From Gammaproteobacteria bacterium (GTDB lineage Bacteria; Pseudomonadota; Gammaproteobacteria; Pseudomonadales; Azotimanducaceae), in assembly GCA_028820495.1 (NCBI GenBank), contig JAPPIX010000042.1, forward strand, positions 21,490 to 77,929: 56,440 bases of DNA. The letters are read 5' to 3'. The number at the start of each line of letters is the position of its first letter. Position 1 is the stretch's first letter. This document shows positions 23,111 to 27,214 of this stretch, one piece after another. A model generated the notes under the pieces. That model did not search any database. It was given only the letters and a program-made list of their open reading frames with translations, and had not been told where the DNA came from. The translations under genes were made by a program, and so were the position numbers.

Positions 23111-25719
<2,609 letters not shown>

Positions 25720-25720
<1 letters not shown>

Positions 25721-25983
25721 TGCTCCATCCGGTTGACAATTGCGCATCAGTGGCAGCGGGAGCGTTCCGGGCAAGGCGCGGTCGCGCAGACGTAGGCGCA
25801 CTACTTCAAGCGGCCGCAACGCGGTCCGGGGCGCTCCCGCTGCCACCCGAAGGGCGCGTCCACAAGCGCCCATCTGCTTTGTTGTCGGCCCTTGACGTAT
25901 GGCGGGATACGACTGCGGGCCTCCGCCGCGCATCTGGACGCTTGTGGACGCGCTGATGCGTAATTGTCAACCGGATGGAGCAC
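25720..25983. promoter_or_regulatory. 264-bp three-way-junction foldback element that contains the lysC ribosome-binding site
   Basis: Outer arms 25720-25750 and 25953-25983 pair at 30 of 31 positions. Inside, 25750-25764 pairs perfectly with 25832-25846 (15 bp), and 25854-25868 pairs perfectly with 25939-25953 (15 bp). The outer stem ends where each inner stem begins; only the 7 bases 25847-25853 join the inner stems. This is a compact three-way junction. The third arm carries smaller stems (CGTAT/ATACG and GGCCC/GGGCC). The right outer arm holds GGATGGAG, the likely lysC ribosome-binding site. Whether it acts as RNA or is an inserted foldback DNA is unknown. Confidence 0.7.
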
Positions 25984-25987
25984 TCGC

Positions 25988-27214
25988 ATGACTCTCATCG
26001 TTCAGAAGTACGGCGGCACCAGCGTCGGCAGCATCGACAAGATTCGTGCGGTTGCCAAGCGCGTGGGGGATGCGCGTGAGGCTGGGCACGAGGTGATCGT
26101 CGTGCTTTCGGCGATGGCCGGTGAGACCGATCGGCTGCAGGACCTCGGTTCGTCGATTTCGGCGCGGCCAGCACCGGAGGAGATGGACGTGCTGCTGGCC
26201 GCCGGGGAGCAGGCGTCAATTGCCCTGTTGGCCATGGCGCTCAAGGACCTCGGCCATCCCAGCCGTTCCTACTTGGCGCACCAGGTGGGCATCCGTACGG
26301 ACGCCGACCACCAGCGGGCCCGGATTGAACAGATCGATACATCCGCCTTGCGCGAATCGTTGGCTGCGGGAGTGACGCCGGTGGTGGCGGGCTTTCAAGG
26401 CATCGAAGGGTCTTCGGGCCGGCTCACCACCTTGGGTCGCGGCGGTTCGGACACCACCGCGGTCGCCGTGGCGGCGGCGGTTGAGGCGCACGAGTGCCAA
26501 ATCTGCACCGACGTGGACGGCGTGTACACGGCCGATCCGAGGATCGTGGCCGACGCCCGCCGCCTCGATCACGTCACCTTCGAGGAGATGTTCGAACTGG
26601 CCAGCCTCGGCTCCAAGGTGCTGCATCCCCGGTCCGTTGAGTTCGCCGGCAAGTACGCGGTGCCGCTGCGCGTGCTGTCGAGTTTCGCGGCGGGCGGCGG
26701 CACCCTCATCACCGTGGAGAGCGAATCTATGGAACAGCCCATCGTGTCCGGCATTGCCCATGCGCGCGACGAAGCCAAGATCACCATGTCCGGGGTGCCG
26801 GACGTGCCCGGCGTCGCGTCGAAGATCCTCGGCCCGGTGGGCCGCGCGCCCATCGAGGTGGACATGATCGTGCAGAACACCGGCGCCGACGGCCTGACCG
26901 ACTTCACCTTCACGGTGAAGCGCGGCGACTATGCGAGGACCTTGGAGTTGGTGCAGCCGGTTTGCTCGGAACTCGGAGCCCGCTCGGTCTCCGGCGATGA
27001 CCAGATCGCCAAGGTGTCGGTGGTCGGCGTCGGCATGCGCTCCCACGCTGGCGTCGCGATGCGGGTGTTCGACACCTTGGCAGCGGAGAACATCAACATT
27101 CAGATGATCTCCACCTCGGAAATAAAAATCTCGGTCGTCGTTGCCGAGCGCTACATGGAGCTTGCGGTGCGGGCGTTGCATGCGGCCTTTGAACTCGACG
27201 ATCCGAAGGATTGA
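25988..27214 (+). CDS. lysC: Aspartate kinase
   Basis: This 408-residue protein starts at the ATG at 25988 (MTLIVQKYGGTSVG). It has the kinase motifs KYGGTSVGS, RLTTLGRGGSDTTAVA and CQICTDVDGVYTADPR, and two C-terminal ACT domains (about 265 onward) that bind lysine and/or threonine for feedback control. It phosphorylates aspartate, the first step to lysine, methionine and threonine. The ribosome-binding site lies inside the foldback element upstream. csrA and a tRNA-Ser, often found after lysC in this group, are missing; a MaoC-like gene follows after 3 bp. Confidence 0.97.
   Translation: MTLIVQKYGGTSVGSIDKIRAVAKRVGDAREAGHEVIVVLSAMAGETDRLQDLGSSISARPAPEEMDVLLAAGEQASIALLAMALKDLGHPSRSYLAHQVGIRTDADHQRARIEQIDTSALRESLAAGVTPVVAGFQGIEGSSGRLTTLGRGGSDTTAVAVAAAVEAHECQICTDVDGVYTADPRIVADARRLDHVTFEEMFELASLGSKVLHPRSVEFAGKYAVPLRVLSSFAAGGGTLITVESESMEQPIVSGIAHARDEAKITMSGVPDVPGVASKILGPVGRAPIEVDMIVQNTGADGLTDFTFTVKRGDYARTLELVQPVCSELGARSVSGDDQIAKVSVVGVGMRSHAGVAMRVFDTLAAENINIQMISTSEIKISVVVAERYMELAVRALHAAFELDDPKD

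What the first reader, a model, noticed from the sequence alone, without database searches (positions are those of the whole stretch)
25720..25983. A 264-bp three-way junction between alaS and lysC that would bury the lysC ribosome-binding site
Three stems meet with almost no unpaired bases: an outer stem of 31 bp with one mismatch and two inner stems of 15 perfect bp. It starts directly after the alaS stop and ends 5 bases before the lysC ATG. GGATGGAG in the right arm is base-paired with CTCCATCC in the left arm, so transcripts coming from alaS would hide the lysC start, while transcripts starting inside would not. It does not match the L-box lysine riboswitch that I know. It could be a novel leader RNA or a foldback DNA element that settled here.
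Basis: partly seen in the sequence, partly recalled or inferred. Interest (0 to 1): 0.78.

Follow-up and report, generated by a model that had tools for sequence, protein, structure and literature searches.

The report
Mobile two-hairpin DNA element before lysC
A 266-base foldback element lies between alaS and lysC here but is missing from the same spot in close relatives; it belongs to a large family in this bacterial class whose hairpin heads keep their structure while the outer ends differ from copy to copy, likely so that unrelated transposases can move it.

Summary
The structure is real: 25719-25984, outer arms of 32 bp with one mismatch, fold z = -13.4. It is not an ancestral lysC leader. 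None of 8 same-genus relatives has it at alaS-lysC, and this genome holds further copies. Ends, target and length fit insertion at the TA of the alaS stop codon (TAA in the closest relative, TAG here) by an IS630-type transposase. IS630 genes with similar ends occur in this genome and in a relative, but many carriers show none.

The wider result is new to me. Both inner hairpins end in a conserved structured "head". The head model matches 113 of 369 sampled genomes of the class, and inverted head pairs at a fixed distance recur. Heads covary strongly. Outer stems are mostly self-complementary within a copy yet differ between copies. Two copies in this genome share 200 of 202 core bases but only 18 of 32 bases in each arm. 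Ends of two unrelated transposase families (IS630, IS5) match such outer stems. Wobble pairs outnumber A-C mismatches, which suggests selection on one folded strand.

The lysC ribosome-binding site is predicted to be buried in read-through RNA; any effect on lysC is untested.

The parts
23111..25720 (+). alaS; its stop codon TAG (25718-25720) is completed by the element
   Evidence: ORF; Pfam tRNA-synt_2c; relative G008 has TAA here
25719..25750 (+). left outer arm (IS630-type terminal inverted repeat), AGTGCTCCATCCGG...CATCAG
   Evidence: similar ends in many copies
25751..25764 (+). 5' side of inner stem A
25767..25829 (+). head A, conserved structured hairpin head in sense orientation
   Evidence: model R1 match G000:C326:47256-47318, 69 bits; this head is one of the 16 the model was built from
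25832..25845 (+). 3' side of inner stem A
25846..25854 (+). central mini-hairpin CCCGAAGGG (CCCNNNGGG in 30 of 36 genomes)
25855..25868 (+). 5' side of inner stem B
25871..25936 (-). head B, the same kind of head, inverted relative to head A
   Evidence: model R1 match G000:C326:47361-47424 minus, 66 bits (also among the 16)
25939..25952 (+). 3' side of inner stem B
25953..25984 (+). right outer arm; carries GGATGGAG (25973-25980), the likely lysC ribosome-binding site
25988..27214 (+). lysC, aspartate kinase
   Evidence: Pfam AA_kinase and ACT domains

Best explanation
This is one copy of a multi-copy foldback element (a MITE, a transposon without its own transposase) that likely inserted at the TA of the alaS stop codon and is likely moved by an IS630-type transposase acting in trans. 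Shown: further copies in this genome; no element at this junction in 8 same-genus relatives; a length-exact fit to a TA target; outer arms resembling the ends of IS630 elements; two inverted hairpin heads at a fixed distance, whose base pairs covary across the class. Inferred: because nearly every such end starts with G after TA, insertion into a TAA or TAG stop re-forms TAG and spares the upstream gene. Inferred: cores and outer arms recombine as modules, so that one chassis can be carried by unrelated transposases (IS630, IS5). Inferred: the heads work as one folded strand (RNA or single-stranded DNA). Inferred and weakly supported: at this locus the right arm supplies the lysC ribosome-binding site, which the fold hides unless a ribosome finishing alaS opens the left arm.
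For: Copies: 5 other places in this genome match the element, two of them perhaps the two ends of one copy, and there is a second subfamily. Empty sites: 0 of 8 same-genus relatives have the element at alaS-lysC; 4 of 4 G000 copies examined are absent from the orthologous place in G008. TA target: alaS GCCTAAGATG becomes CTTA[element]TCGCATG; gpsA CCTAAACATCC becomes CGTA[element]TAGGCATCC, both length-exact (gpsA by Pfam). TIR and transposase: L091 IS630 in G000; L344 IS630 in G021, first 14 bases identical to G021 foldback ends; L350 broken IS5-family gene in G221, one end identical over 19 bases to G221 foldback ends. Stop codons: 28 of 80 ends close at least 100 open codons with TAG (29 with the window's own alaS end, mis-indexed in that script), against 8 and 17 in the other frames. 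Modules: L001 and L002 share 200/202 core bases but 18/32 in each arm; L012 and L023 share 29/32 in each arm but 149/207 in the core. Covariation: 18 of 19 head pairs change on both sides, score 0.786 against 0.190 in shuffles.
Against: The window's right flank reads TC, not TA, and the two bases after it also differ from G008. IS630 genes (PF13358) were found in only 4 of 12 genomes carrying foldbacks or head matches; G004, with 29 end matches, has none, so the present mover of many copies is unknown. L091's end agrees with the window's arm at only 14 of the first 24 bases. No transposition was observed. L159's junction aligns with gaps in G008, and L294's site in G008, though without the element, carries CTAGTGCCTCGT, like the TIR. 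Ribosome-at-stop folding frees the ribosome-binding region only to 0.10-0.46.
Confidence: 0.85

Rival explanations
1. It is a cis-regulatory leader RNA of lysC that controls translation by hiding and releasing the ribosome-binding site in response to a signal.
For: The ribosome-binding site is paired in the predicted read-through RNA; GGAG lies 7 bases before the lysC ATG.
Against: 8 of 8 same-genus relatives lack it at lysC; copies of the element sit at unrelated genes, e.g. after gpsA and before an FtsX-like permease gene; no Rfam match.
Confidence: 0.07
2. A REP/BIME-type palindrome moved by a tyrosine (RAYT) transposase, the heads being its recognition hairpins, and the TIR-like ends secondary.
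For: Two inverted structured hairpins at fixed distance resemble a REP dimer; the heads show strand-specific wobble.
Against: No conserved GTAG or CGTC tag in the head consensus; outer stems of about 32-36 bp, many ending at TA, resemble IS630 or IS5 ends where a transposase was found.
Confidence: 0.06
3. The heads have no function; arm complementarity is kept only by DNA repair copying one arm onto the other in a foldback, and covariation is a by-product.
For: It would explain concordant multi-base changes in both arms of one copy, e.g. L023 against L030.
Against: Invariant bases that the predicted fold leaves unpaired in the heads and G-T far above A-C (33 to 3 in heads, 23 to 5 in inner arms) are not expected of a strand-symmetric repair process.
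Confidence: 0.2

Closest known systems
RUP of Streptococcus pneumoniae (MITE proposed to be moved by IS630-Spn1)
   Same: Short, multi-copy, intergenic, no transposase gene, TIRs like IS630-Spn1, TA target (passages of PMC2229807).
   Different: RUP is 107 bp and pneumococcal, with a 9-bp contiguous TIR in that review's table; here 266 bp, two conserved heads, fixed geometry, class-wide, outer stems of several types.
MITEPlu5/ERIC of enterobacteria
   Same: TA-flanked MITE, strong secondary structure, ends like some IS630 elements (passages of PMC6267812).
   Different: 123 bp with highly similar copies; no two-headed core or exchange of ends in the passages seen.
CIR elements of Caulobacter/Brucella
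   Same: Intergenic repeats predicted to form two hairpin arms joined by a linker (passage of PMC2229807).
   Different: About 110 bp, no outer stem described, GANTC motif in a loop, other bacteria.
GTAG/CGTC-tagged REP dimers
   Same: Inverted pairs of palindromes (passages of PMC3733652).
   Different: 20-40 bp units with unpaired tags at one end; here the ends are paired TIRs and the conserved parts are the hairpin heads.
QMITE1/QMITE2 of Coxiella burnetii
   Same: Gammaproteobacterial MITEs with strong predicted folds (passages of PMC5896051).
   Different: QMITE1 is reported there as without relatives in other genomes; not compared by sequence here.

Membership tests
IS630-associated MITE | short, multi-copy, no transposase gene of its own | tested here: met
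   266 bp, too short for a transposase gene; 5 other places in G000
IS630-associated MITE | TA target duplication | tested here: inconclusive
   Length-exact at two empty sites, TA on both sides in L002; the window's right side reads TC
IS630-associated MITE | terminal repeats shared with an IS630 element of the same host | tested here: inconclusive
   G021: first 14 bases identical. G000: 14 of 24 with L091. No IS630 gene in G004
IS630-associated MITE | absence at orthologous sites in relatives | tested here: met
   window junction: 0 of 8 relatives have it; 4 of 4 G000 copies examined absent in G008
IS630-associated MITE | mobilised by the transposase | not testable with these tools
   needs an experiment
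RUP | 107-bp pneumococcal sequence | tested here: not met
   266 bp, and named relatives are gammaproteobacteria; works like RUP but is no member
L-box lysine riboswitch | match to the Rfam covariance model | tested here: not met
   no family at gathering score in the window
REP/BIME (RAYT) | GTAG or CGTC tag at one end of the palindrome | tested here: not met
   no such conserved columns in A2; element ends are paired
REP/BIME (RAYT) | RAYT gene in the genome | not tested
   no search run

The most novel reading that the evidence does not exclude
A class-wide family of modular mobile elements: one two-headed hairpin chassis, kept as a strand-specific fold, that swaps its whole outer stem between the ends of unrelated transposase families (IS630, IS5 and others) and so parasitises whichever transposase is at hand, and that lands in stop codons while rebuilding them as TAG. 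At operon junctions its foldback brings the upstream stop codon next to the downstream start and so would keep the two genes translationally coupled.
Probability: 0.5. Interest if true: 0.82.

Novelty: new variant of a known kind. Interest (0 to 1): 0.66.

Why it matters
MITEs are usually seen as shrunken copies of one insertion sequence in one species. Here a conserved structured head matches 113 of 369 sampled genomes of the class, and elements with two such heads carry different, mostly self-matching outer ends (29 of 35 scored) that in the cases found resemble the ends of two unrelated transposase families. That makes it testable whether a small element can change transposase, and what the folded heads do. 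Neither the window nor 20 loci carrying such heads have an Rfam match at gathering score.

Tried and rejected
Plasmid and phage collections with the window's element: no match. Viral contigs with the genus end pattern: none. Other family members against plasmids: no match for L165 and L183; the Azotobacter member against phages: none. An IS between the paired GGGAGCC-type ends at G221:C1:4642065-4643416: the only ORF of 120 aa or more is an AraC-type regulator flanked by element pieces. Autonomous elements for G308 ends and for other G000 ends: the two candidate stretches that I took (L340, L339) hold a trypsin-like protease gene, an AbgT transporter gene and a tRNA-synthetase gene, no transposase among the ORFs scanned. 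PF01609 genes: none in G492 and G370; those in G168, G074, G249 and G308 showed no pair of GGGAGCC-type ends, one end-like site in L351. Promoter near lysC: none. Literature: no paper found that describes this family. Searches were made; passages of five papers were seen, no paper in full; subscription journals and ISfinder are not covered.

Limits of the counts. The tallies include the window's own genome, come from overlapping samples, use strict filters and score a capped number of candidates per genome. The 94 loci are 34 best hits returned plus 60 that I picked for spread. For one search I took 46 loci with a pair of heads; L182, L185 and L251 had a partly matched partner and were left out, the rest are single, weak or cut by contig ends. 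One search used one locus for each of 36 genomes (35 scored for outer arms, of which 6 fell below 24/28); its inner-arm control was run on the first head only. A2 holds 49 of the 145 head matches, from 46 genomes. The hits were found with an RNA model, which favours paired heads and scores G-U as a pair; the inner arms lie outside that model. One search used 40 elements picked by hand for clear ends. In one search the labelled ribosome-binding ranges are shifted by one base (the long one covers 25972-25982). In one search three relatives (G006, G001, G005) were printed on the wrong side; one search repeated them.

Full report
WHAT IS THERE. Window 25719-25984 is a 266-base nested palindrome between alaS and lysC: outer arms of 32 bp with one mismatch, two inner hairpins and a central CCCGAAGGG mini-hairpin. 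Its folding energy is far below 200 shuffles (z -13.4). The alaS stop TAG (25718-25720) overlaps the left end. GGATGGAG in the right arm is complementary to the left arm and lies just upstream of the lysC ATG (25988).

IT IS A MOBILE ELEMENT. The window's own genome (a 418-contig assembly) has five further places that match the element. Four of them lie at contig ends, as expected for repeats, and two (C26, C387) may be the ends of one copy. A pattern of the outer arm, with up to 3 mismatches, finds 7 forward and 5 reverse matches in this genome and up to 20 and 27 in a relative, against 0-2 per strand for the reversed control. At the alaS-lysC junction none of the 8 same-genus relatives searched has the element. 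In G008 (LysC 99% identical) it reads GCC TAA G ATG; in G006 CTAAGATG and in G007 CTGAGATG. Three other G000 copies were checked through joined flanks, and all three are absent from G008. For the gpsA copy (L002; Pfam) and the window copy the length fits a TA duplication exactly. In both, the neighbouring TAA stop of G008 is TAG in G000. Insertion rather than loss is inferred by parsimony. In a scan of named genomes the genus end pattern occurs in seven metagenome bins (26 stretches), all titled as gammaproteobacteria, Pseudomonadales or Candidatus Azophilus lithoversatilis. That most of these are sponge symbionts is recall, not a tool result.

WHAT MOVES IT. G000 has a 1222-bp element with ends AGTACTCCGTCAATCAGATAGT and CTAG at both sides that encodes an IS630-family transposase in two frames. 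Its end agrees with the window's arm at 14 of the first 24 bases. G021 has an IS630 element whose end TAGTGCTCCGTCAA is identical over 14 bases to foldback ends in that genome. G221 has foldbacks with GGGAGCCTCTGAATAA ends and a broken IS5-family gene between GGGAACCTCTGATCAA and GGGAGCCTCTGAATAA. Against this, 8 of 12 genomes carrying foldbacks or head matches show no IS630 gene, so for most copies the transposase is not identified.

THE FAMILY. The two inner hairpins carry a homologous head. A covariance model of 16 heads matches 59 of 194 genomes sampled from the order and 113 of 369 sampled from the class, often in several copies. In 46 of the 94 loci examined I took the heads as an inverted pair; these span 165-171 bases. 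In one locus from each of 36 genomes the centre is CCCNNNGGG in 30. The outer arms are complementary at 24 or more of 28 bases in 29 of 35, against 12 of 1190 pairings of arms from different genomes. The inner arms match at 10 or more of 12 bases in 35 and 33 of 36, against 23 of 1260 in a control on the first head. So stems keep length and, mostly, complementarity while their sequence changes. Named carriers are plasmids of Azotobacter chroococcum, Pseudomonas aeruginosa PA83 and Halomonas sp. PA16-9, and one viral contig carries what reads as a full copy.

STRUCTURE UNDER SELECTION. In an unfitted alignment of 49 heads, 18 of 19 pairs have changes on both sides; 95.9% of cells pair (66.0% in shuffles) and the covariation score is 0.786 against 0.190, sd 0.014. 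Sliding the partner destroys the signal. G-T cells outnumber A-C cells 33 to 3 in the heads (leaving out one G-T column) and 23 to 5 in the inner arms of 46 heads, which the model did not use (p = 0.0009 for the latter). This points to one folded strand, RNA or single-stranded DNA. As the heads are inverted, each strand of the element carries one head in the favoured orientation.

MODULES. L001 and L002, in the same genome, share 200 of 202 core bases, but each arm agrees at only 18 of 32 bases while matching its partner arm. L012 and L023 show the reverse: arms 29 of 32, core 149 of 207. Exchange of outer stems is the simplest reading; the mechanism is unknown.

EFFECT AT lysC. In read-through RNA the region 25972-25982 is unpaired with mean probability 0.007. 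With a ribosome-sized block at the alaS stop it rises to 0.10-0.46 without a steady trend in the length blocked. No sigma-70-like promoter was found. A coupling role is thus only a hypothesis. A similar placement, between the stop of one gene and the start of the next on the same strand, is seen in the P. aeruginosa plasmid.

STOP CODONS. Of 80 ends in 40 elements chosen for clear ends, 28 close at least 100 open codons with TAG (29 with the window's alaS end, which that script mis-indexed by one base), against 8 and 17 in the other frames. In the same 80 ends 66 boundary codons read TAG; L192 gives TAA at both ends.

KNOWN OR NEW. MITEs proposed to be moved by IS630 elements are known (RUP, MITEPlu5/ERIC; passages of PMC2229807 and PMC6267812). 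I found no description of this two-headed family or of exchange of ends in the searches listed. Rfam 15 has no match at gathering score in the window or in 20 loci.

Noticed in passing
L093, L094, L096 (G004), L084 and L086 (G006), L112 (G021): 46-bp 'solo' palindromes made of the outer arm alone, most next to TA; consistent with deletion between ATCAG repeats.
   Followed up: partly
L363 (G008:C142): The element-free site orthologous to the G000:C372 copy carries CTAGTGCCTCGT, the start of that copy's TIR; either a remnant or a target that resembles the end.
   Followed up: no
L078-L083, L085, L089, L090 and others: Many single TIR-like ends for which no good partner was found within the stretch fetched; some look shared between G000 and G008.
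   Followed up: no
L376 401-670 (P. aeruginosa PA83 plasmid NZ_CP017294): A family member fills the gap between an acyl-CoA dehydrogenase gene and a CaiB/BaiF gene on the same strand.
   Followed up: partly
L378 (Azotobacter chroococcum HR1 plasmid NZ_CP066311): A family member lies next to an annotated IS630 family transposase gene.
   Followed up: no
L375 (IMGVR_UViG_2811995032_000003): What reads as a full family member in a viral contig.
   Followed up: no
L114, L119 (G021): Chimeric short elements whose two arms come from different end subfamilies.
   Followed up: no
window 25852-25871: A terminator-like match inside the element on the + strand.
   Followed up: no
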